A stretch of 64,000 nt of DNA from Fibrobacter sp. (GTDB taxonomy: Bacteria; Fibrobacterota; Fibrobacteria; Fibrobacterales; Fibrobacteraceae). The stretch is taken from positions 1-64,000 of the forward strand of contig JAKSIG010000001.1 of the NCBI GenBank assembly GCA_024398955.1. The letters run 5' to 3'. The notes beneath the pieces are model-generated. The model saw only the letters and a list, made by a program, of their open reading frames with translations, was not told where the DNA came from and did not search any database. Position numbers and translations under genes: made by a program. Positions 46,638 through 57,299 of this stretch are shown one piece after another (positions within the stretch are counted from its first letter, which is position 1; each line of letters begins with the position of its first letter).

Positions 46638-46922
46638 AATAACTCCAGTAATTCACTACGAAATCTAACAATTTATAGGGGCGTTTGCTCAAAAAGGCAA
46701 GTAAAAATGCGAGTGTAAACTTTTGTTAATGCGTTTTTGTGTGATGAATGCACGATTCCGCAGTATATCCACCGTTTGTATACAAAACAAACCGCTTTTT
46801 TTACTTAAATTTCAAAAAATAATTGGCATTTTCGGTTTGAAAAGGATAAATTTCAAGCCGGTGTGGCATTTCAGAATGACCGGTCTTTCTGTTTTGCCAG
46901 AATGTTGGAAGGAAAACCATCG
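46638..46922. other. Divergent gap between the cyclase and fibro-slime genes
   Basis: AT-rich, about 285 bases, no gene seen. A short stretch TTGAAA...TTTCAA around 46838-46855 could fold. I see no confident promoter. Confidence 0.4.
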
Positions 46923-49900
46923 ATGGATATTAAGATTATGAAGAATGCAAAGAATACCCTGCTCGGCGGATCCCTTAAGTGGATTTTGGGCGCTAGTGCT
47001 GTACTGATGGGCGTTCAGAGTGCTATGGCATGTACGGGCACAGCCTATATTCGTGTCCCGAGTACCTGGTCTGATGTGAATATTTTCTACGGTAACGAGA
47101 CTACTGTTATTCCCAAGACCGCCTACGATGCAACTTCCGACTACTATATTGTAGACCTTGGAACATTGAAAGGCAATATGAATTCCTACTTCCTGGTCTA
47201 CTCCACCGATGAAGGAAGTTCTATTGACCATCCCGGTGTCTTGTCTATTAACTCTGCAATTTATAACCAGGTGTATGCCGGTCGTCCTGAAGCTGGATTG
47301 AAGAACGCTGCTGGTCAGCCGGATACAACTCTTGGTCACATCGGTATTAAGTGCCCGGGTGATGGTGCCTCTGTTTATGTTATGGATAATCCCACCAAGC
47401 CGGGTACCACCTATACCGGTGATGTCCCGTCGGGTGCAAAGTATTTCCATTTCCTCGTTCCCGATAACGTAGAATGGCAGGGTGACCAGATCATCATGAA
47501 CATTGATGGTGTCAAGGATACCGCCATGTCTCCGGACCCGAATCTTTGTGGTTGGGTCAGCATGGTTTTTGAAAGTGCTCCTTCTGCAGTTTATTTCTAC
47601 AGAAAGAATGACCCCGCAGCCCAGATTGGTCAGGGCGGTATTCCGGATTATGACGCAGGTAAGCCTGCCACACCTATTGATTTGGCTACCCAGTACGAAA
47701 CCTTTGGCGTAGATGAACTTTACTTTATGCCCGACGAAGAAGACTGGCCGGATGGGGCTCTTAGTGGCTGGAACATTGTAGACCCAGGCGTACCTGACCC
47801 CGATGACAAGGCTCGTTGCTCCTTCTCTCTGGCAGCCTTGATTTACGATAGCGATGAAGAGGTGAACCCCGTGTTCTCTCACGATGGTGGTGGTGATATT
47901 TCCAATCCCTATGGCAAAATTACCGGATATAATGATGGCTGCGTTGGCGTGCACCATGGCATAGTTGACGTGAACCTTGGCCCCGATGGTAAGCCTAAGT
48001 TCTCTGGTAGCGCCAATGCAATTAAGTGCTTCGGCAACGAAGCTAACTTCAATACCCTCTTTAACTATACCCCGGGTAAGAACGAAGTGCAGTGCTATGA
48101 TATGCCTTTCCGTCACTATGGCACCGATACCCGTTGGGGCTACGACTCTGACTCTGCTGTAACCAATGATCTTGTTGGCGGTTTCTCTCCCCTCGAAGAA
48201 ACCACTGATCTTGGCGTGGTAACAACTAATGGTGTGACCATGGGCCCCCTTGCTAAAGCAAGAACCAAACGTCCTGCCGCAGGTCCTGTTCCCACCATGC
48301 CTGGTATTTTCCCCATGAAGGTGGGCGTTAACACTGTTCAGGACTTTGACCATTATTGCAATACCCCGGGTTGGACTGGCGGTACAGACTGTGAAGGAAA
48401 GTTTGACAATGGTGATAACCCGGCTGATTTCTGGTGCTGGGGCAACTACTGCAATGCTAACTTTAAGCGTTGGGGTGATGGTTCTGCAGACCTTCCGCTT
48501 ACTAAAAATGAAAAGCGTAACCAGCAGTTCTGCTTCCAGTCTCATGCAACCTTCGTTTATCACGAAGACCAGGAATTTACCTTCCGTGGTGACGATGACA
48601 TTTGGGTGTTCATTAACAAGAAACTGGCCGTGGATAACGGTGGTGCCCACTTGGCAGCACCTGGCCACGTTGTGCTGAAGAATCTAAACGCAGTCTATGG
48701 TGAAGGCTTCCTGGAAAAGGATAACACTTACGACCTGGATATCTTCTTCTGTGACCGCCGTACGACCATGAGTAACGTGATCATCAAGACCAATATGTAT
48801 ATCCAGCAGAAGGTGGCTATCACTTCTAAGAAGACTAAGGACTATACCGCAGCCAATCCTTCTTACGAACTGTGCTATAAGGAAACTGGTGACGGTTCCT
48901 GCGCTGCTGCAGTGACTGGCTCTAGCGACGGTGTGGAATGCTGCGGTGCAGACTTTACAGATCCAAAAAAGCCTGAATGTGCTGCTGTTCAGATTCACTA
49001 CTACCTTGTTAACGGTAGCAAGCTCGAAAAGGGCGCCGATGGTACCTTTGCTGCAGAACTGCTCCCCAACGCTGTGGGTGTAAAGGGCGGCTTCGATCTG
49101 TCTAACCCTGCAATGCCTGTTATCCATAAGGATAAGCTGACTCTTGGCCCGGGTAAGTGGACCCTCTGGTCTGAAATTTCCGGTAAGACTAAGTTGGTCT
49201 ATACCTACCGTTCTGCAGGTGTGGTTGATGTGGTTTATGGCAATGCCGTTGCCCTTGACTCCTCTGACCAATCTCTCCCCTGTACCAAGACTACTTGCGG
49301 CTTTATGGGCGTCGAAAAGTCCAACTACAAGGTTGAAACCTTTGCTATGGGTGGCGTACTGCTTCCGGTTTATGTTACTGCCGTTCAGGAATCTGGTGAC
49401 TCTATCCAGTTGCTGCCTTACGATGCCAGAGGCCTGGATTACACTCTGGATTATGACAGCCGCATCCTTGACGTTTATGCAAAGGGTGGCTCTGGCCCCT
49501 GCATGGATGTTGAAGGAATTGGTAAAGTCTGTAAGTTGGCTGCTGGCGAAAAGCGCGTCTTTGGCGAAGATGGCGGTGTGGATACGCTCTACGCCACTGT
49601 CGACATGAATGTTCTCGAAAATCCGACTGAAACCTACTCCATCAATGTAACTGGTCATGCCGATAAGAAGCTTAAGCTCACCTACTACTTGCCCCAGATT
49701 TCCTTTGTGGATAGCAAGGATCCGGATGCATGGAAGGAAAAGAAGGGTGAAGATGTGAATGACCCCAAGTTTGTTGAATACTGGGTGGGTTCCTTCTATG
49801 ACTTTAACGTTGTCGCAATGAAGCCCGACGAAAAGGGTGTCTACTATCGTTGCGAAGAATGCTCCTTGCCTTTGAGCCTGACTATTGGTACTTCTGATGG

Positions 49901-51671
49901 TATCACTCTCAGCGACGAAGAAGCTGTGTTCGAAAATGGCTTTGCTACCATCTCTCTGCGTTGCATCGGTGATGCCTGCAAGACTTACCGCCATGCTGCT
50001 GCCGGTGACGACCCGTCTATCGAAAAGCCCGCTGCAGTTGTGATTACTGGTGGTAATCCGGCTATTACTGCGACCTACTATCCGATTTACTTCCGTGAAC
50101 CGCCTGTACCTGTGCCGCAGTATGCAGACATCTTTGATGTGAAGGGCGCTCCGTCTTCTGAACAGCTCAGAATCTATCTGCCTTACCAGGCTGATGAATA
50201 TCTGGACGGTATCGCAGACTCCATTGCTATTTACTATAACCGTCCCATTCATAAGGACTCCTTGCCCAACTCTATCTGTATCTTGTGGGATTCCACTTCT
50301 GCACAGACTGTGAATGCCTATAAGGAAGGTCTCTCCAATATCCCGAAGGATTCCGCAAACCCGATCATGTGTAATGCGATTGTGGATCAGACCAAGTATT
50401 CCTGCCTAGAATTGGATGCAGGTACTGGCTACTGCGCAAACCGTATCGAAATCGGAGGCCTTGAGCTCTCTAGTTCTGTAAAGACCGCTGGAGAAGGTAT
50501 GGTTTACTCCTTCGCTCAGTTCGAAGATAAGGGTAAGACAATGAAGCAGGGCTTCGATGGTCACGTAGTTGATCGTATTGCTCCTGTGGTTCTCGAAGCT
50601 ATCGTTCTTTCTCGTAAGGATGCTGATGGCGAACTGACTGGTTACGACAACCTGACCATTACCGTTTCTGAACCGGTTAAGTTGATTGACCAGGCTAACG
50701 TTACTGCTCTTGACTTCTACCTGAACTCTGCAACCAGCCTTGATTCCGCTGACCGCCTGGCTTCTGCAACCGCTGCTACTCAGTATGTTGTATCTGCAAT
50801 GGGTGCTCCGGTGATCTCTGTCGACAATGGCAAGGGCAAGATTGAAGTTATCTACTACAACGATCCCAAGAAGCCTGCAAGCAATGTTGTTACCCCCCAC
50901 GCTGGCGACTATATGCGTCTCGGTGGCGATATGCAGCAGCCTGTCTGGATTGATGCAGCCGCTATCAATGCCTACGTAACCGAAGAAGTTCAGCGTGTCT
51001 CTGCCGATGCAGCCTACAACTGGAACGCTCCCACCGGTTACAAGGAAACCTCTCGTCTGCCGTCTCGCTGGATTCTGGTTACGGGTGACGCAGAAGTGGG
51101 TATCTTTGATGTTAACTTCGCCTATACCGGTAATGCCGCAAACTGCGAAACTTGCGTTGAACCGATTACTGTGTTCCCGGTTTCTAGCCTCGACGGTAAC
51201 GAACAGGTTATCAAGAGCCTTGGCGGTCTTCCGGGTCAGTTCGTCAAGTCTGACATGAAGGCTCTCTACGACAAGATGAAGCTGTCTGGTGCAGAAATTG
51301 ACATTAACGAACTGTACTTCTCTTATGAGGTTGAGTACTACACTAATCTGGGTGCCTATGTGGCAGGCAAGAGCGGTAAGATCTACTGCAGCGATGCTAA
51401 GAACATGGCCGAAAACGGCGCCTACTACTTCGGTGGCGAAGGCCATGACTGTACCGAACACGGCACGAACTTCTTCCTTGCCTGGAACATGAAGTCTGAC
51501 AAGGGTCGTGAAGTGGGTACCGGTGCCTACATTACCAAGATGAGTTCTTACGTTCGCATCCTTGGCAATAAGGAAAACCAGAAGGAAGAAACTTCCATCT
51601 TCGGTATCAGAAAGTCTAACGCTGCTTACCCCATCGATCGTACTTGGGAAGACTTTAAGAAGCACAACTAA
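46923..51671 (+). CDS. Giant fibro-slime domain surface protein
   Basis: The protein has 1582 residues. A signal peptide ends near residue 36 (AMA before CTG). The fibro-slime (PA14-like) domain covers roughly 430-625; its hallmark is FRGDDDIWVFINKKLAVDNGGAHL (near 555), then YDLDIFFCDRRTTMSNVIIKT. Many Cys pairs occur along the chain (e.g. CYKETGDGSC, CEECSLP, CETC), pointing to disulfide-linked extracellular modules. A FlgD-like Ig segment (FFLAWNMKSDKGREVGTGAYI) lies near the end. Unlike the cellulases above, no type IX sorting domain is seen. Fibro-slime proteins of F. succinogenes are linked to cellulose adhesion. ATG 46923 is chosen since AGGAA lies 8 bases ahead. Confidence 0.9.
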   Translation: MDIKIMKNAKNTLLGGSLKWILGASAVLMGVQSAMACTGTAYIRVPSTWSDVNIFYGNETTVIPKTAYDATSDYYIVDLGTLKGNMNSYFLVYSTDEGSSIDHPGVLSINSAIYNQVYAGRPEAGLKNAAGQPDTTLGHIGIKCPGDGASVYVMDNPTKPGTTYTGDVPSGAKYFHFLVPDNVEWQGDQIIMNIDGVKDTAMSPDPNLCGWVSMVFESAPSAVYFYRKNDPAAQIGQGGIPDYDAGKPATPIDLATQYETFGVDELYFMPDEEDWPDGALSGWNIVDPGVPDPDDKARCSFSLAALIYDSDEEVNPVFSHDGGGDISNPYGKITGYNDGCVGVHHGIVDVNLGPDGKPKFSGSANAIKCFGNEANFNTLFNYTPGKNEVQCYDMPFRHYGTDTRWGYDSDSAVTNDLVGGFSPLEETTDLGVVTTNGVTMGPLAKARTKRPAAGPVPTMPGIFPMKVGVNTVQDFDHYCNTPGWTGGTDCEGKFDNGDNPADFWCWGNYCNANFKRWGDGSADLPLTKNEKRNQQFCFQSHATFVYHEDQEFTFRGDDDIWVFINKKLAVDNGGAHLAAPGHVVLKNLNAVYGEGFLEKDNTYDLDIFFCDRRTTMSNVIIKTNMYIQQKVAITSKKTKDYTAANPSYELCYKETGDGSCAAAVTGSSDGVECCGADFTDPKKPECAAVQIHYYLVNGSKLEKGADGTFAAELLPNAVGVKGGFDLSNPAMPVIHKDKLTLGPGKWTLWSEISGKTKLVYTYRSAGVVDVVYGNAVALDSSDQSLPCTKTTCGFMGVEKSNYKVETFAMGGVLLPVYVTAVQESGDSIQLLPYDARGLDYTLDYDSRILDVYAKGGSGPCMDVEGIGKVCKLAAGEKRVFGEDGGVDTLYATVDMNVLENPTETYSINVTGHADKKLKLTYYLPQISFVDSKDPDAWKEKKGEDVNDPKFVEYWVGSFYDFNVVAMKPDEKGVYYRCEECSLPLSLTIGTSDGITLSDEEAVFENGFATISLRCIGDACKTYRHAAAGDDPSIEKPAAVVITGGNPAITATYYPIYFREPPVPVPQYADIFDVKGAPSSEQLRIYLPYQADEYLDGIADSIAIYYNRPIHKDSLPNSICILWDSTSAQTVNAYKEGLSNIPKDSANPIMCNAIVDQTKYSCLELDAGTGYCANRIEIGGLELSSSVKTAGEGMVYSFAQFEDKGKTMKQGFDGHVVDRIAPVVLEAIVLSRKDADGELTGYDNLTITVSEPVKLIDQANVTALDFYLNSATSLDSADRLASATAATQYVVSAMGAPVISVDNGKGKIEVIYYNDPKKPASNVVTPHAGDYMRLGGDMQQPVWIDAAAINAYVTEEVQRVSADAAYNWNAPTGYKETSRLPSRWILVTGDAEVGIFDVNFAYTGNAANCETCVEPITVFPVSSLDGNEQVIKSLGGLPGQFVKSDMKALYDKMKLSGAEIDINELYFSYEVEYYTNLGAYVAGKSGKIYCSDAKNMAENGAYYFGGEGHDCTEHGTNFFLAWNMKSDKGREVGTGAYITKMSSYVRILGNKENQKEETSIFGIRKSNAAYPIDRTWEDFKKHN

Positions 51672-51699
51672 TTAAGGTCAAGATCAAAACGATTTGCAA

Positions 51700-51727
51700 A
51701 AAGGGACGGATGATTCCGTCCCTTTTT
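51700..51727 (+). terminator. Terminator after the fibro-slime gene
   Basis: AAAGGGACGGA with TCCGTCCCTTT around a 4-base loop, then a T run. Confidence 0.9.
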
Positions 51728-51729
51728 GT

Positions 51730-51737
51730 TATATTTG
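51730..51737 (+). promoter_or_regulatory. TATATTTG box 4 bases ahead of the SPOR gene
   Basis: The box follows the preceding terminator almost at once and is followed by CACC and the ATG at 51742. It implies a leaderless message. Confidence 0.4.
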
Positions 51738-51741
51738 CACC

Positions 51742-52158
51742 ATGCGAAAGATGTTAGCTATCATGTCAATTTTGGCTGTGGGATTCTCTGCTGCAATTGC
51801 AGATGGACCTACGGATTTAGACTCCCTTTTCAAGGGCAAGGAATACAGGCCCGAATTGAATGCTGGCCTTAGGGATTCTGCAGCAAGTCAGGCTGCGGTT
51901 GTCAGCAAGTCCGCTGCAAAGTCCGGGAAGTCCGAAGGCTACTATATGCTTCAGTTTGAAGCTGTGGCTGATTTCGATGCTGCACAGCGTCGCCGAGCCC
52001 AGATTTCTGCAAGCACCGGCTATGCCATTCAGGTTGTGTTTGACACTCCGTTCTACAAGCTCCGCGGTGGTGGATGGACAACAAAGAAGGCTGCCGAAGA
52101 CAAGGCTCGTGAGCTGTCCGCCTACAACATTAATGCTTTTGTGGTCAAGGTAAAGTAA
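51742..52158 (+). CDS. Periplasmic SPOR-domain protein
   Basis: The protein has 138 residues: a signal peptide (1-20), a Ser/Ala/Lys linker, and a SPOR domain over the last 70 residues (YYMLQFEAVADFDAAQRRRAQI, then FYKLRGGGWTTKKAAEDKARELSAYNINAFVVKV). SPOR domains bind denuded glycan at the division site. The ATG has no Shine-Dalgarno sequence. It is flanked by terminators on both sides and so is a single-gene unit. Confidence 0.9.
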   Translation: MRKMLAIMSILAVGFSAAIADGPTDLDSLFKGKEYRPELNAGLRDSAASQAAVVSKSAAKSGKSEGYYMLQFEAVADFDAAQRRRAQISASTGYAIQVVFDTPFYKLRGGGWTTKKAAEDKARELSAYNINAFVVKVK

Positions 52159-52236: not shown

Positions 52237-55200
52237 TTATTCAAGAAGCCCAAGTGCCTGCTTGATGGAATGTTCGTCCATGGCGGCAGGCATGAGCGCA
52301 CGTTCCTCGGGACCCACAAAGGCGAGCTTGCGTTCAAAGTCGGGGCGTCCTTCGCGGTTGCGAGGAGTGATGTCTAGAGGCTTCAGCGAATAGTAGAAGG
52401 GACCGGTCTTTACAAAGCGCTTCTTTTGCAGACCTTGGTTCAGCGCTTCTGTTATGGCTTGCTGCAGCATGGGGCCTGCGCGGTCCACATGATGCAATTC
52501 CAGCAGTCGCAGCTTGAGAACTTCTTCGTGAATGGGCGCTTCGTGATCCACATAGAACTTGAGCTGTGTAATGAGGGCCGCAACAGGCAATTCTGCAATA
52601 GGCTTGTCGTGGGGGGTTCCCTCGATCTTGGGGTGTTGCACCTGGTAAGGGACTACCTGGGAGCCTTCGTTAAAGATTTCTTCCAGTTCCTCTTCTTCGG
52701 GTTCTGTTTCGTCGCGAGGTGGCGGAGCGATGCTTTGCTCGATAGCTATGGTGGTCACCAGATGGCCTACTTCGTCTTGGTTGGCCATGAACCAGAACGG
52801 CAACCAGACGGTAAGAACCTTCCAGCCCATCTGCTTTAGGATGGTGGGGCGGATATAGTCGCGGTCTTCGACAGAGTCGCGGAAACGTTCCGTGGTGCAG
52901 TCGTCTTCTACAAGGGCCAGGAAACGGTTGCTGTTGTTGGCGTCTACAACTACGGGGCCTACGGGAATGCTTCCCTTGGAGAAGCTTTCTTCGGCCTGGA
53001 TGTTTTCCTTCTGCAAGGCCGCCATGATGCTATCGCGTATGATGGAGCTCGCTGTGTGCTGCTCGTTGACTTCTGAGAAGTCCTTGGCCTGCAGGTAGGC
53101 TATCCATTCCCAGAACAATGACTTTTTGGCATTCGCCTGCTTAGAGGTATCGGATTCGGAAATGAATACGTGTGTCTCGGCCTTGGCGAGCGTGGTGCAG
53201 ACGCAGACCTTGTTGTCGTTATTGGCGCTGCTTACATAGTCTGTTTCGGCACATACAAGAACCACATCTCTGAAGCGACCCACAGCTCTTTCTGGAGTCT
53301 TGACATAGAATCGAATGTCCGGATTTTGTTGCGCGAAGAATCTTGCGGTTGCGGAACCTGCGGCTACCAGGGCATGGATGGCTTCTTCGATTTCGTGGCA
53401 GGTTGACTGGTGGAAGGCTACAATGCCCAGGGTCTTGCTCGGGGACTTTTCTGCGTGTCGAATAGCAGCCTGTGCAATGGAAAGGATCTTGTTCTGTACA
53501 GTCCTGAATTTGATACCGTTAAACTTTTCGCGGTTTGGTACCGGCAACTGCTTGATGCTGTGGTTGTAAACCTTCTGGTTGGCAAAACTGATGAGCGAGG
53601 CGTCGGCGTACTGGCTGGAGAACCACAGTTCTCGAGTCGGAATGCCCTGACGGAGCGCCGCGGACAGAATGCTGTCATGGAAGAACGACGTGTGGGATAT
53701 TGCCGGTTCCTGGAATGCGTCAAAGGGCTGCGGTTCCAATGTTGGGGCATGGGGGTCGCCAATCAGGATGACCTTGTCGGAACAGAGTATGGCGGGAATC
53801 GCCTCGACGATAGAAATGCAGTCTGCATCCAGGAGGATGGCGATGTCGTAATGCTTGTCTTTAGCAATTGTAAAGGTGGAACTGAGGCTAACTGCGGTCA
53901 GCTTGCTGGGGTCGTCTTGCAGGGCTTTATGAAGTTCGCTAAAGTTTGCATTGTTGAATCGGTCTGTTAGGTCTCTGTATTCCTTGCTCTTTTGGGCGTG
54001 GACCTTGGGCGTTAGGGAAAACAGTTCCGGGAACGCGCGTGTGGCCGACTGGATCTGGCTTCCGGCCCAATAATGTACCACAGCTTGGCTGATTTCCTTG
54101 CTTACGTTGCCTGCGTCCTTGACGAATGCTGAAAGGCTGGGGCAGTTGTATTCCTCTATCTTGTTGAGCAAGGCTGTTAGCTGCAGATGCACATCGAGAT
54201 TTTCCCAGTTCTTGCTCCAGGACTTGATGGTACCGAGCCATTTTTCGATGCTCTGGCTTTCTAGAGGTTCCTCAAGATTTAAATCCTTGGTAATCTGACG
54301 GATAGAAATCTGCAGGCTTTTTACGGATTCGCATAAATTTTGAATTTGCGGCTGGATGTCCTTGAACAGGTGCCATTGTTCAAGAATCTGCAGAAGTAGA
54401 TCTAGACGGGGATCCTTCTTATGCTTGTCGCGGAAGCTATAAACGAACTGGATCTTTGTGTTAAGCTCTACCCAGTTGGAACGTTCGTATAGCCAGTCCT
54501 TTCCTAACAGGTGATTGCCTAGAACGGCAGTCTCTTTATAGGCCTTCTTGTTTTCCTGCAATTCCAGCAGGGCATCGATAAGGTCGATGAGCTGGTTGTC
54601 GGATTGGACATCCTTGGGATTACGGAGAACTTGCAGCAGACGGCGTCTAGAGGAACGGTATCGATCCGAAAGGCCCTTGAGGGTCGCCTTCTGACTTTCT
54701 ACAAAGTCATCGCGGGCCGAAAGAATGTTTTCGTCGGCGGCGTTGTCGGTGTAGATTTCGGATGTCTGCCTGCGATAACGCACCCACATGTCGCCAGCTT
54801 CGGGTAATTCCAGCAGGGTATCCCTATAGGCGTCCCAGTTGTTGGATCTGAGCTGCCACTGTTCAAAGACAGGTGTTTCTGCATCAAAGTTTTCGCTGAT
54901 AAGGTTCAGGATGTCGGCAAGTCCTGCCAGGAAAATTCCTGTGGGGAAGAGTCCGGCTTCTTCAAAGCGCTTGATGATTTCGTCAAGTTCTGTTGCTCTT
55001 GTGGACGCTCTGTTCAGTTCTTCGGCTAGTTTGCCTTTTTGCTCTGGCGTTAGGCTGGGAACCTTGACTCCCTGAAATGCCTTTCGTGCCTCGACTCCGT
55101 TTCTGGCAAAATAAAGATCCGTAAGCTCGTTGAGGTCGTTCTTTAGCTTTTCGTAATTGTCAAAGCTAAGATTGCCGACTCCCTGGAATATGGATTCTGG

Positions 55201-56346
55201 AAGTTTTTGCTTTGGGGCTCGGGCTTTTGTAAATTCGGTCAGGAGGCTCGACAGCATTGCACCCGAGGGCTGAATCGGCTTGTTGACCGTGGCGTAGTAG
55301 TCAACGAAATTCTTGCGTGCGGTATTCAGTTCCTTGGCCAGGGCGTCGCGATCTACATTTGGAAAGGTGCGGAAGGGAGGCTTCCAGGCGTTTTGGAATT
55401 CCCTTGCGGTAACGGCACGACGATGGACCACAAGAACGTTCTTGCCTTGGGCTATGGAGTCAGCTACGATATTTGCGGCGACTTTTGCCTTGGATGTCCC
55501 TGGCAAAGCCTGAAGGGCGTAGGCCGGCGCTTCGGGGTTCATGGCATCTAGCGTCGCCTTGCTGGTATGGGAATCTACAGTGTATAGAAAGTGATGCTCG
55601 CAAGGATTAAAGACCTTGTCGAAGTCCGCGTCTTCAAACAGGGATTCCTTGATTTCAAAACCGTCTTCCTTGAGTAAAGAAGAAAGCATTGGGTTAGAAT
55701 CGACTTTTTTGTCAGACCAGCCAGATTCCAGACAATCCTTGAGAAACAGTCTGTTGGTATTGAAGAATCCGAGACAAAGCCCGTGGCGTGTGAATTTCCA
55801 GGTCCTCATGCTGGCGATGGCCTTCTCGAACATTGAGAAGTATAGGAGAAGGCTGAACTGGCCATTGATGGCGGCATCGCTTGCCTTTGGCAGCGCCACG
55901 ACATCTTTAAGCCTTTCTCGCAGAATGACATTTTCGATAGGCATTCTGTTGGCGAGGGTCAGTGTCCTTTTGCTTAAGTCTACGTCGACCGGCATTAGGA
56001 GGCTGGGGGCAAGAGCGTTGCCGTCCCACTTGAGAAATCCCAATACTAGGTACAAATCAGATTGCGCAAAGTCTTCGTCCTTTTCTCTAAGGACTGTGCA
56101 GACCGTATCCATGACGGTCATTTTCTGCTGAGCCGTAAACTTTTCGCTTACGGGGAAGAACGAATCAAGGGGCAGGGGACCACCGGACTGTTTCCATTTT
56201 TCATAAAAAAGGTCTCCCGCCTCCATAATGAGGGGGGACTGGAAATCGCCCTTGGTCGAAAAACTAAGCAGACGGTCCTTGGAATCAAAAAGGGATGCTT
56301 CCTGACAAATCTTTGAAACTATTGCAGAGGGGGACACTTGCGCCAT
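52237..56346 (-). CDS. DUF4011 / helicase-like / nuclease-like / DUF3320 giant protein with degenerate motifs
   Basis: The protein has 1369 residues. The N-terminus (about 20-245) follows DUF4011: LYLVLGFLKWDGNALAPSLLMPVDVDLSKRTL. A SF1-helicase-like region follows, but Walker A reads ALPGTSKAK (about 280) where relatives have GPPGTGKS, and the DEAS box reads LDADC. Later motifs SSQYADASLISFANQKVY and PERAVGRFRDVVLVC are also altered. Near 1130-1200 is a Vsr/MTES_1575-like nuclease domain (LALVEDDC, RDYIRPTILKQMGW), and at 1265-1345 a DUF3320 domain. This domain order is that of a family linked to phage defence (as I recall, the single-gene system named Hhe). The ATPase is probably dead, so its job is open. 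It ends at a bidirectional terminator. Confidence 0.78.
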   Translation of the reverse strand: MAQVSPSAIVSKICQEASLFDSKDRLLSFSTKGDFQSPLIMEAGDLFYEKWKQSGGPLPLDSFFPVSEKFTAQQKMTVMDTVCTVLREKDEDFAQSDLYLVLGFLKWDGNALAPSLLMPVDVDLSKRTLTLANRMPIENVILRERLKDVVALPKASDAAINGQFSLLLYFSMFEKAIASMRTWKFTRHGLCLGFFNTNRLFLKDCLESGWSDKKVDSNPMLSSLLKEDGFEIKESLFEDADFDKVFNPCEHHFLYTVDSHTSKATLDAMNPEAPAYALQALPGTSKAKVAANIVADSIAQGKNVLVVHRRAVTAREFQNAWKPPFRTFPNVDRDALAKELNTARKNFVDYYATVNKPIQPSGAMLSSLLTEFTKARAPKQKLPESIFQGVGNLSFDNYEKLKNDLNELTDLYFARNGVEARKAFQGVKVPSLTPEQKGKLAEELNRASTRATELDEIIKRFEEAGLFPTGIFLAGLADILNLISENFDAETPVFEQWQLRSNNWDAYRDTLLELPEAGDMWVRYRRQTSEIYTDNAADENILSARDDFVESQKATLKGLSDRYRSSRRRLLQVLRNPKDVQSDNQLIDLIDALLELQENKKAYKETAVLGNHLLGKDWLYERSNWVELNTKIQFVYSFRDKHKKDPRLDLLLQILEQWHLFKDIQPQIQNLCESVKSLQISIRQITKDLNLEEPLESQSIEKWLGTIKSWSKNWENLDVHLQLTALLNKIEEYNCPSLSAFVKDAGNVSKEISQAVVHYWAGSQIQSATRAFPELFSLTPKVHAQKSKEYRDLTDRFNNANFSELHKALQDDPSKLTAVSLSSTFTIAKDKHYDIAILLDADCISIVEAIPAILCSDKVILIGDPHAPTLEPQPFDAFQEPAISHTSFFHDSILSAALRQGIPTRELWFSSQYADASLISFANQKVYNHSIKQLPVPNREKFNGIKFRTVQNKILSIAQAAIRHAEKSPSKTLGIVAFHQSTCHEIEEAIHALVAAGSATARFFAQQNPDIRFYVKTPERAVGRFRDVVLVCAETDYVSSANNDNKVCVCTTLAKAETHVFISESDTSKQANAKKSLFWEWIAYLQAKDFSEVNEQHTASSIIRDSIMAALQKENIQAEESFSKGSIPVGPVVVDANNSNRFLALVEDDCTTERFRDSVEDRDYIRPTILKQMGWKVLTVWLPFWFMANQDEVGHLVTTIAIEQSIAPPPRDETEPEEEELEEIFNEGSQVVPYQVQHPKIEGTPHDKPIAELPVAALITQLKFYVDHEAPIHEEVLKLRLLELHHVDRAGPMLQQAITEALNQGLQKKRFVKTGPFYYSLKPLDITPRNREGRPDFERKLAFVGPEERALMPAAMDEHSIKQALGLLE

Positions 56347-56390: not shown

Positions 56391-57299
56391 TTATAATGTG
56401 CTTGCTATTTGGTCAATGGCTTCGCAGAGGGATATCCGTGCAAGTTCCTTCCTTAATTTGGCCTTGTATAGGACTCTTCCGAGTAGTTCTTCGGGTGTGA
56501 TTCCAGCTTCCTTATCCTGGCGGATGCTGTGGGCCAATTCCCTTTTTGATAGCTTCTTACCGTTAGGGTCCACGATTAGGCCATGGTGCAGGTATAGGGG
56601 GCGGCGGTAGGCAGGAATGTTCAATTGTGGGGCGTCCTGGCATGTCTCGGCAATTGCTTCCGAAAGCATGATCTGGCGTGCTGTTGAGTTCCTGATGTCT
56701 TCTCCTCGCACAATATGGGTTATGCCCTGGCTCAGGTCGTCGATACAGACCGCAAATTGATATGTCCAGAATCCATCACGGTCTTGAATGGGAAAGTCGC
56801 CGCACTGTAGGGCAGGGCTTTCGCTGAAGTTTCCTAGACGCAGATCCGTCCAGTTGATTACTTTGTCTGAAACCTTAAAGCGGGTGTTGTGAGGTGGCAT
56901 GGGGGCGATGCCGTTGTCTAGGGCCCGGTGACGGCATTTCCCCTGATAGATGATTTCTCCGGTTTCGCTGCGTGGGTTTTCTGCTTCTAGAAGTTTGCGG
57001 CTGCAGGTGCAGGGATATACCCGGTTTTTGGCCTTAAGTTTCTCCAGAACCTGCTGGTAAAAGCAGAAGCGTTCGCTTTGAATGCTTTCGCTGTGGTGCT
57101 CAAAGCCCAGCCATTCCAAGTCTTCGCGGATTCCGTCGATGTATGCCTGGCGGGCTCTGCCCTGGTCGTGATCCTCGATTCGTAAATGAATATGCAGATC
57201 CCATTTTTTTGCGGCAGCCCATACGTAGAGGGCCGAAAGGAGGTGACCTTCGTGTAAATACCCTGTGGGACTGGGGGCGAATCGGATTTTACCTGTCAT
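56391..57299 (-). CDS. gluQ: Glutamyl-queuosine tRNA(Asp) synthetase
   Basis: The enzyme attaches glutamate to queuosine 34 of tRNA-Asp. At 302 residues it is a GluRS catalytic domain without the anticodon-binding half, the mark of GluQ-RS (YadB). HIGH equivalent: PTGYLHEGH; KMSKS equivalent: KKLSKRE. Zinc ligands: CTC near residue 97 with YQGKC near 118. It is separated from the DUF4011 gene by 44 bases and could share its transcript. Confidence 0.93.
   Translation of the reverse strand: MTGKIRFAPSPTGYLHEGHLLSALYVWAAAKKWDLHIHLRIEDHDQGRARQAYIDGIREDLEWLGFEHHSESIQSERFCFYQQVLEKLKAKNRVYPCTCSRKLLEAENPRSETGEIIYQGKCRHRALDNGIAPMPPHNTRFKVSDKVINWTDLRLGNFSESPALQCGDFPIQDRDGFWTYQFAVCIDDLSQGITHIVRGEDIRNSTARQIMLSEAIAETCQDAPQLNIPAYRRPLYLHHGLIVDPNGKKLSKRELAHSIRQDKEAGITPEELLGRVLYKAKLRKELARISLCEAIDQIASTL

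What the first reader, a model, noticed from the sequence alone, without database searches (positions are those of the whole stretch)
52237..56346. Giant DUF4011-type defence relative with a ruined helicase core
The domain order DUF4011, SF1-like, Vsr-like nuclease, DUF3320 is retained over 1369 residues, and the frame is fully open, so the gene is under selection. But Walker A (ALPGTSKAK), Walker B (LDADC) and the later helicase motifs are all changed. The nuclease region keeps VEDDC and the RDYIRP segment. This may be a defence protein that no longer needs ATP, or a protein recruited to another task. No other defence gene is beside it.
Basis: partly seen in the sequence, partly recalled or inferred. 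Interest (0 to 1): 0.65.

Follow-up and report, generated by a model that had tools for sequence, protein, structure and literature searches.

The report
Core double-dead helicase-nuclease of Fibrobacter
This giant protein looks like a virus-fighting DNA motor-and-scissors enzyme whose motor and cutting residues are altered in every relative examined, yet gut bacteria of one family keep it as a fixed, conserved gene, which suggests it was recruited for another job.

Summary
Window 52237-56346 (minus strand) encodes an open 1369-aa protein with the architecture of PDC-S37/Hhe/ProA: DUF4011, SF1 helicase, Vsr-like nuclease, DUF3320. All 84 orthologues examined lack the motif II DE pair and an intact P-loop, and none keeps motif V Gln or motif VI Arg, although 70 of 84 keep the Walker lysine. 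The nuclease also lost its first Asp; only E-x-D remains. Ten full-length relatives keep the helicase motifs.

It is not a pseudogene: dN/dS 0.077, against 0.095 for neighbour gluQ. It is not accessory: 78 of 80 congeners and 15 of 31 other genomes of the family have it, nearly always directly behind gluQ, with branching close to that of RpoB. Intact relatives occur patchily in a few of the same genomes; two sit near restriction-modification genes.

Best reading: a defence-type helicase-nuclease acquired once, inactivated and domesticated before the crown genera split, probably binding nucleic acid or scaffolding as RecC and AddB do. The function is inferred, not shown.

The parts
52237..56346 (-). 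1369-aa gene, degenerate DUF4011 / SF1 helicase / Vsr-like nuclease / DUF3320 protein
55597..56346 (-). residues 1-250, N-terminal region with DUF4011 remnant (91-146); limits approximate
55357..55596 (-). residues 251-330, first part of RecA-like domain 1; degenerate P-loop ALPGTSKAK at 280-288 (55483-55509)
53902..55356 (-). residues 331-815, all-helical insert; many family-invariant residues at 497-632
53557..53901 (-). residues 816-930, second part of RecA-like domain 1; LDAD replaces DEAS at 839-842 (53821-53832); degenerate motifs III and IV
53062..53556 (-). residues 931-1095, RecA-like domain 2; degenerate motifs V and VI, RD (1026-1027) kept
52747..53061 (-). residues 1096-1200, MTES_1575/Vsr-like nuclease domain without its first catalytic Asp; E1147, D1149 kept
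52240..52650 (-). residues 1233-1369, DUF3320 and conserved C-terminus (lowest dN/dS, 0.050)
56391..57299 (-). gluQ-like gene directly upstream, 44-nt gap, conserved neighbour, possible operon

Best explanation
A DUF4011-type SF1 helicase-nuclease, of the kind used as single-gene anti-phage systems, was acquired once by an ancestor of the crown genera of this family (taken to be Fibrobacteraceae). It lost its ATPase and nuclease residues before those genera diverged and has since been kept as a vertically inherited core gene behind gluQ. It most likely works without catalysis: the inactivated RecA-like domains, helical insert, inactivated nuclease domain and DUF3320 C-terminus form a nucleic-acid-binding or scanning scaffold that regulates a separate active partner, as the inactivated helicase domains of RecC and AddB do in RecBCD and AddAB. 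Shown here: homology and predicted fold, loss of catalytic residues, conservation, fixed locus, purifying selection. Inferred: loss of activity, nucleic-acid binding, the existence of a partner, co-transcription with gluQ.
For: Motif II DE absent in 84 of 84, motif VI Arg in 83 of 83 letters, first nuclease Asp in 83 of 83 letters, against present in 10 of 10 comparators for each. Fold kept: pLDDT 86.6 and 87.0; UvrD Z 20.4 (rmsd 3.9, 320 aligned), Upf1 Z 17.8 (rmsd 3.1, 332 aligned), Ighmbp2 Z 18.3 (rmsd 4.2, 329 aligned). 78 of 80 congeners and 15 of 31 other family genomes. gluQ neighbour in 30 of 31 loci. Gene tree and RpoB tree nearly congruent. dN/dS 0.077 over 27 pairs, 0.063-0.093 in the dead core, gluQ 0.095. 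Precedents: RecC, AddB, D. radiodurans PriA.
Against: No activity, binding or partner was measured. The Walker lysine persists in 70 of 84 and E1147/D1149 in 83 of 83, so residual ATP or metal binding is possible. The family clade has support of only 0.577 in the gene tree. RecC is already present in most of these genomes, so no obvious vacancy exists. No partner gene was identified; g19 lacks the gluQ neighbour and G164 lacks the gene.
Confidence: 0.5

Rival explanations
1. It is still an anti-phage protein: a sensor, decoy or regulator that lost its own enzymatic activity but triggers or supports another effector.
For: Strongest family match is the defence candidate PDC-S37 (400 bits). A core DUF4011 gene also flanks a defence hotspot in every P. 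aeruginosa isolate examined in PMC10250203 (passages), so core presence does not exclude immunity.
Against: Near-universal in the genus, fixed locus, no PADLOC match in ten flanking proteins, housekeeping-like dN/dS; intact relatives in the same genus are patchy and two lie near restriction-modification genes.
Confidence: 0.22
2. It is still an enzyme with non-canonical active sites: K286 and the acidic cluster E1147/D1149/E1160/D1161 serve a remodelled ATPase or metal site.
For: K286 kept in 70 of 84; E1147 and D1149 in 83 of 83, E1160 in 82 and D1161 in 81 of 83 letters.
Against: K286 is replaced in 14 of 84 (W, A, G and others); motif II, V and VI residues that couple ATP are all gone; first nuclease Asp gone in 83 of 83 letters. 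Geometry could not be measured.
Confidence: 0.13
3. It acts on RNA or tRNA together with the GluQ-like enzyme, as an Upf1-like fold reused in RNA metabolism.
For: Neighbour of gluQ in 30 of 31 loci, gaps of 7-79 nt in 57 of 62. Upf1, Ighmbp2 and Sen1 rank high in fold comparison.
Against: g19 keeps the gene although no GluQ-like gene was found beside it or in its genome; G164 keeps gluQ without the gene. A shared fold shows no substrate.
Confidence: 0.08
4. It is a decaying pseudogene or an assembly artefact.
For: One in-frame TAG (G028) and one apparent frameshift (G116) among the 93 genomes with the gene.
Against: Open over about 1360-1400 aa in nearly all complete copies; dN/dS 0.077.
Confidence: 0.01

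Closest known systems
PDC-S37 (PADLOC-DB candidate defence family PDLC05009)
   Same: Best profile match, three stretches, 400 bits; same domain order
   Different: Full-length members score 1225-1952 bits and keep all helicase motifs; this clade is about 1369 aa against a 1550-position profile, degenerate and core
Hhe (NF042953) and ProA (NF058533), DUF4011 anti-phage proteins
   Same: Homologous helicase and nuclease regions
   Different: 109 and 281 bits against cut-offs of 2000 and 1500; catalytic motifs intact in the Hhe and ProA comparators, lost here
RecC / AddB
   Same: Principle: SF1 helicase fold without motifs plus, in RecC, an inactivated nuclease domain (PMC1185551, PMC4824097, passages)
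   Different: No RecC Pfam match; genomes have their own RecC (11 of 13); DUF4011/DUF3320 ends; no partner known
Pseudohelicases: D. radiodurans PriA, yeast Utp25
   Same: Helicase fold kept, motifs lost or dispensable; PriA keeps DNA binding and a DnaB contact (PMC4504706, PMC9539457, abstracts)
   Different: Not DUF4011 proteins; no inactivated nuclease is mentioned in the abstracts read

Membership tests
DUF4011 (PF13195) | Pfam score above gathering cut-off 22.2 | tested here: inconclusive
   15.1 bits for this protein; 14 of 19 orthologues match at E<=0.01; orthologues in G005, G107, G033 and G158 exceed the cut-off
PDC-S37 | Profile match over the whole length | tested here: inconclusive
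   400 bits in three stretches against 1225-1952 for three full-length members; no cut-off given
Hhe (NF042953 equivalog) | Score above 2000 | tested here: not met
   109.2 bits
ProA (NF058533 equivalog) | Score above 1500 | tested here: not met
   280.6 bits
Active SF1 helicase | Intact P-loop GxxxxGK[ST], DE of motif II, QG of motif V, Arg of motif VI | tested here: not met
   84 orthologues against 10 comparators; pattern scan
SF1 helicase fold | Two RecA-like domains matching solved SF1 helicases | tested here: met
   predicted models only; UvrD Z 20.4, Upf1 Z 17.8, Ighmbp2 Z 18.3
Active MTES_1575/Vsr-like nuclease | First Asp, then [EIL]-x-D-G and a His/Lys/Arg-containing segment, as in the comparators | tested here: not met
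   Asp 0 of 83 letters, Gly replaced by Cys or Ser in 83 of 83; E-x-D kept
Defence-island gene | Patchy presence and defence neighbours | tested here: not met
   78 of 80 congeners; 0 of 10 flanking proteins match PADLOC at E<=1e-5
RecC (PF04257) | Pfam match | tested here: not met
   absent from the Pfam scan at E<=1
RecC-like mechanism | Catalytically inert, binds DNA, controls an active partner | not testable with these tools
   needs biochemistry

The most novel reading that the evidence does not exclude
A second, independently evolved counterpart of RecC: an anti-phage DUF4011 helicase-nuclease whose motor and nuclease were both inactivated and which became a housekeeping DNA- or RNA-reading subunit, fixed in most genera of a bacterial family. 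Present defence catalogues would score it as a candidate immune system.
Probability: 0.3. Interest if true: 0.78.

Novelty: new variant of a known kind. Interest (0 to 1): 0.6.

Why it matters
Domestication of an immune-type helicase-nuclease into a catalytically dead core protein, seen across seven genera with intact relatives still present in some of the same genomes, would be a clear case of how RecC/AddB-like scanners can arise. It also warns that profile-based defence catalogues (PDC-S37 here) can mark a conserved, probably non-immune gene as a defence candidate in nearly every genome of a genus.

Tried and rejected
Pseudogene: rejected by dN/dS and conservation. Intact motifs elsewhere in the protein: pattern scan of 84 orthologues and 10 comparators; the only GxxxxGK[ST] lies at residue 614 of a contig-edge piece, nowhere near the P-loop. 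Substitute for a missing RecC: rejected, RecC is present in 11 of 13 genomes (not found in the window's own incomplete genome or in G106). The PDDEXK_1 search was uneven (7 of 13) and is not used. Phage-borne copies: 82 stretches matched one of two short patterns, none confirmed (weak). Solved relatives by sequence: two chance-level matches. Relatives in named genomes: one locus only. Plasmids: 296 records match, none covering 80% of the query in one place. Search of another class of the phylum: one genome held, uninformative. Orthologues outside this phylum were therefore not properly tested.

Literature: searches for DUF4011/DUF3320, ProA, PDC-S37, Hhe, Fibrobacter with defence, and pseudohelicase listed no paper recognisable as being on this gene; only search listings were seen for most of these, and the library lacks most subscription journals. 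No source paper for ProA was found.

A first RpoB tree used wrong frames for several genomes and was discarded; one search replaces it with 21 sequences. g14, g15, g21 and the window's own genome gave no usable RpoB and are not in it; the support of the crown node itself was not printed after rooting.

Rows dropped: the gene tree leaves out two short pieces (82 of 84 kept). The 84 come from 93 genomes with the gene; nine (the G015 fragment and eight without a locus) were not aligned. dN/dS segments with undefined or very high dS were left out (25-27 of 27 pairs per segment; 23 of 27 for gluQ). One truncated relative (L040) was dropped from the comparators, and one split copy (L118) from that alignment.
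Full report
OBSERVATION. The open frame lies at 52237-56346 on the minus strand, 1369 aa, ATG start, no internal stop. Pfam finds three weak but ordered matches: DUF4011 91-146 (15.1 bits), MTES_1575 nuclease 1105-1200 (35.4 bits, E 1.1e-8) and DUF3320 1266-1295 (19.6 bits), all below their cut-offs. PADLOC gives PDC-S37 at 400 bits (E 5.9e-120) and Hhe at 60.8. NCBIfam gives ProA 280.6 bits (cut-off 1500) and Hhe 109.2 (cut-off 2000). In contrast, four full-length relatives carry DUF4011, MTES_1575, AAA_11 and AAA_12 well above cut-off, and DUF3320 in two of the four.

MOTIFS. I aligned 84 distinct orthologues with 10 full-length relatives: three from Fibrobacter-like genomes of the same genus, one Bacillota MAG, and Azospirillum, Rhizobium, Vibrio, Bacteroides, Halalkalicoccus and the Klebsiella Hhe. 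The comparators have the Q-motif Gln, GPPG[TS]GKSQ, DEASQ, GDxxQ, HYRS, QGDERD and the motif VI Arg in 10 of 10. In the family the Q-motif Gln, the first P-loop Gly and the motif II DE pair are absent in 84 of 84; the second P-loop Gly and the motif IV Arg are not among the eight commonest residues listed for their columns; motif V Gln and motif VI Arg are absent in 83 of 83 letters. The Walker Ser/Thr column holds Ser in 3. Kept are the Walker lysine (70 of 84), the Gly of PGT (84 of 84), the motif III Gly (84 of 84) and the RD of motif V (83 of 83 letters). The register at motif II is ambiguous by one residue: LDA[DE] replaces DEAS, with Leu in the Asp column (83 of 84) and Asp in the Glu column (84 of 84). 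In the nuclease the first Asp is gone (Gly in 70, other residues in 13), the Gly of ECDG is Cys (68) or Ser (15), and His is not among the eight commonest residues of its column; Glu1147 and Asp1149 stay in 83 of 83 letters, and RDRDR becomes ED-x-x-[YC]. The comparators themselves vary here: Glu 7 of 10, His 7 of 10.

FOLD. Models of residues 240-1369 and 1-960, built from 41 orthologues each, reach mean pLDDT 86.6 and 87.0. The first matches SF1 helicases: Foldseek Dna2 5eaw_A E 1.9e-9 and Upf1 2gk6_A E 1.4e-8; VIA-align UvrD 2is4_B Z 20.4 (rmsd 3.9, 320 aligned) and Upf1 2gk6_A Z 17.8 (rmsd 3.1, 332 aligned). The second matches Ighmbp2 4b3g_B Z 18.3 (rmsd 4.2, 329 aligned) and Upf1 6ej5 Z 18.1 (rmsd 3.6, 268 aligned), which are tied. 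The helicase architecture is thus predicted to be retained. The nuclease and C-terminal parts were not tested by fold search on their own.

DISTRIBUTION. In the genus the gene is in 78 of 80 genomes: 37 of 37 (one of them a contig-edge fragment), 38 of 38 and 3 of 5 (after leaving out G015, already counted). The two without it (G111, G121) are 65% and 71% complete and show only glutamate-tRNA-ligase-like matches when gluQ is sought, as expected of a missing stretch. In the rest of the family it is in 15 of 31: g17 3/3, g18 6/6, g19 1/1, g21 1/1, g22 2/2, g23 2/3; it is absent in g14 0/1, g15 0/1, g16 0/12 and g20 0/1 (G097 of g16 has a short weak match). The 23 genomes from outside the family had none. 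One orthologue has an in-frame TAG (G028) and one is split by an apparent frameshift (G116).

LOCUS. A GluQRS-like gene (224.7 bits, below the 256 cut-off) lies directly upstream on the same strand with a 44-nt gap. The automatic neighbour table shows it in 29 of 31 loci; in a thirtieth, L111, it had been hidden by an overlapping frame and was seen. The exception is g19 (L104). Gaps were measured in 62 of 84 loci: 57 between 7 and 79 nt, 5 negative, which I put down to the choice of start codon. G+C content is like that of the neighbours (0.513 against 0.455-0.517). None of ten flanking proteins matches PADLOC at E<=1e-5.

DESCENT. The gene tree puts 82 of 82 family members in one clade on a long branch (1.59; support only 0.577), with g1, g17, g18, g22 and g23 each monophyletic at 1.0. 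RpoB places g16 and g20 outside the crown {g1, g17, g18, g19, g22, g23}. Both trees group g18 with g22 and g17 with g19; they differ in the place of g23. Because all genera share the lost residues, the losses most simply predate the crown. One gain at the base of the crown and one loss (G164) is the simplest history; g14, g15 and g21 could not be placed by RpoB.

SELECTION. Over 27 non-overlapping pairs, summed dN/dS is 0.077 (NG86); by part: N-terminus 0.087, RecA1a 0.063, insert 0.080, RecA1b 0.072, RecA2 0.093, nuclease 0.091, linker 0.174, C-terminus 0.050. gluQ gives 0.095 over 23 of the same pairs. The dead core is therefore constrained about as much as the rest.

CONTRAST. Full-length relatives with intact helicase motifs exist as accessory genes in a few congeners: G033 (L038, PDC-S37 1407 bits), G131 (L105, ProA 2043 bits, above cut-off) and G006 (L039, PDC-S37 1216 bits). 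L039 has a MmeI-type gene and a DUF3990 gene within 3 kb, and L038 a gene with N6-methylase and specificity domains within 2 kb. The dead gene is present in the same three genomes at its own locus. The two forms have gone separate ways: one patchy and intact, one core and apparently inert.

MECHANISM. [quoted passage not shown] AddB and RecC helicase-like domains keep the SF1 topology, lack most motifs and read Chi in the former ssDNA track (PMC4824097, passages); Chi is recognised in a tunnel in RecC (PMC7644769, passages). D. radiodurans PriA lost ATPase and unwinding yet binds DNA and shows evidence of a DnaB contact (PMC4504706, abstract). By analogy I take the protein as a non-catalytic nucleic-acid-binding scaffold or scanner with an unknown active partner. 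That step is inference; the sequence shows only inert-looking sites in a preserved, constrained fold. RecC itself is present in 11 of 13 genomes searched, so this is an additional protein, not a substitute.

LIMITS. Relatives outside the phylum were sampled only through plasmids, the 14 control genomes of the family searches and one named-genome scan with an intact relative. Motif numbers and catalytic roles are recalled from general knowledge of SF1 helicases and PD-(D/E)xK nucleases.

Noticed in passing
L105:6131-11998 (G131) and L039:4308-10256 (G006): Two congeners carry an intact long relative beside the dead core gene; the one in G131 exceeds the ProA cut-off (2043 bits). L039 has MmeI-type and DUF3990 genes close by.
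   Followed up: partly
window 52237-56346: PADLOC's PDC-S37 profile rings in 78 of 80 genomes of the genus largely because of this degenerate gene; defence counts for the genus based on that profile would be inflated.
   Followed up: partly
L172, L175, L180, L183, L185 (g16 and g14): The gluQ-like gene of g16 and g14 is shorter (about 230-266 aa) and aligns in two pieces, seemingly without the stretch around residues 110-166, and sits in other surroundings.
   Followed up: no
window 46863-51671 and 51694-52158: A fibro-slime-domain protein and a small SPOR-domain protein lie downstream on the opposite strand and recur as neighbours in many relatives.
   Followed up: no
L022 (G028) and L118 (G116): Single disrupted copies: one in-frame TAG and one apparent frameshift; real loss or assembly error not resolved.
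   Followed up: no
window 46812-48668 and 48684-50252, minus strand: Long open frames (618 and 522 aa) run antisense to the fibro-slime gene; probably a composition effect.
   Followed up: no
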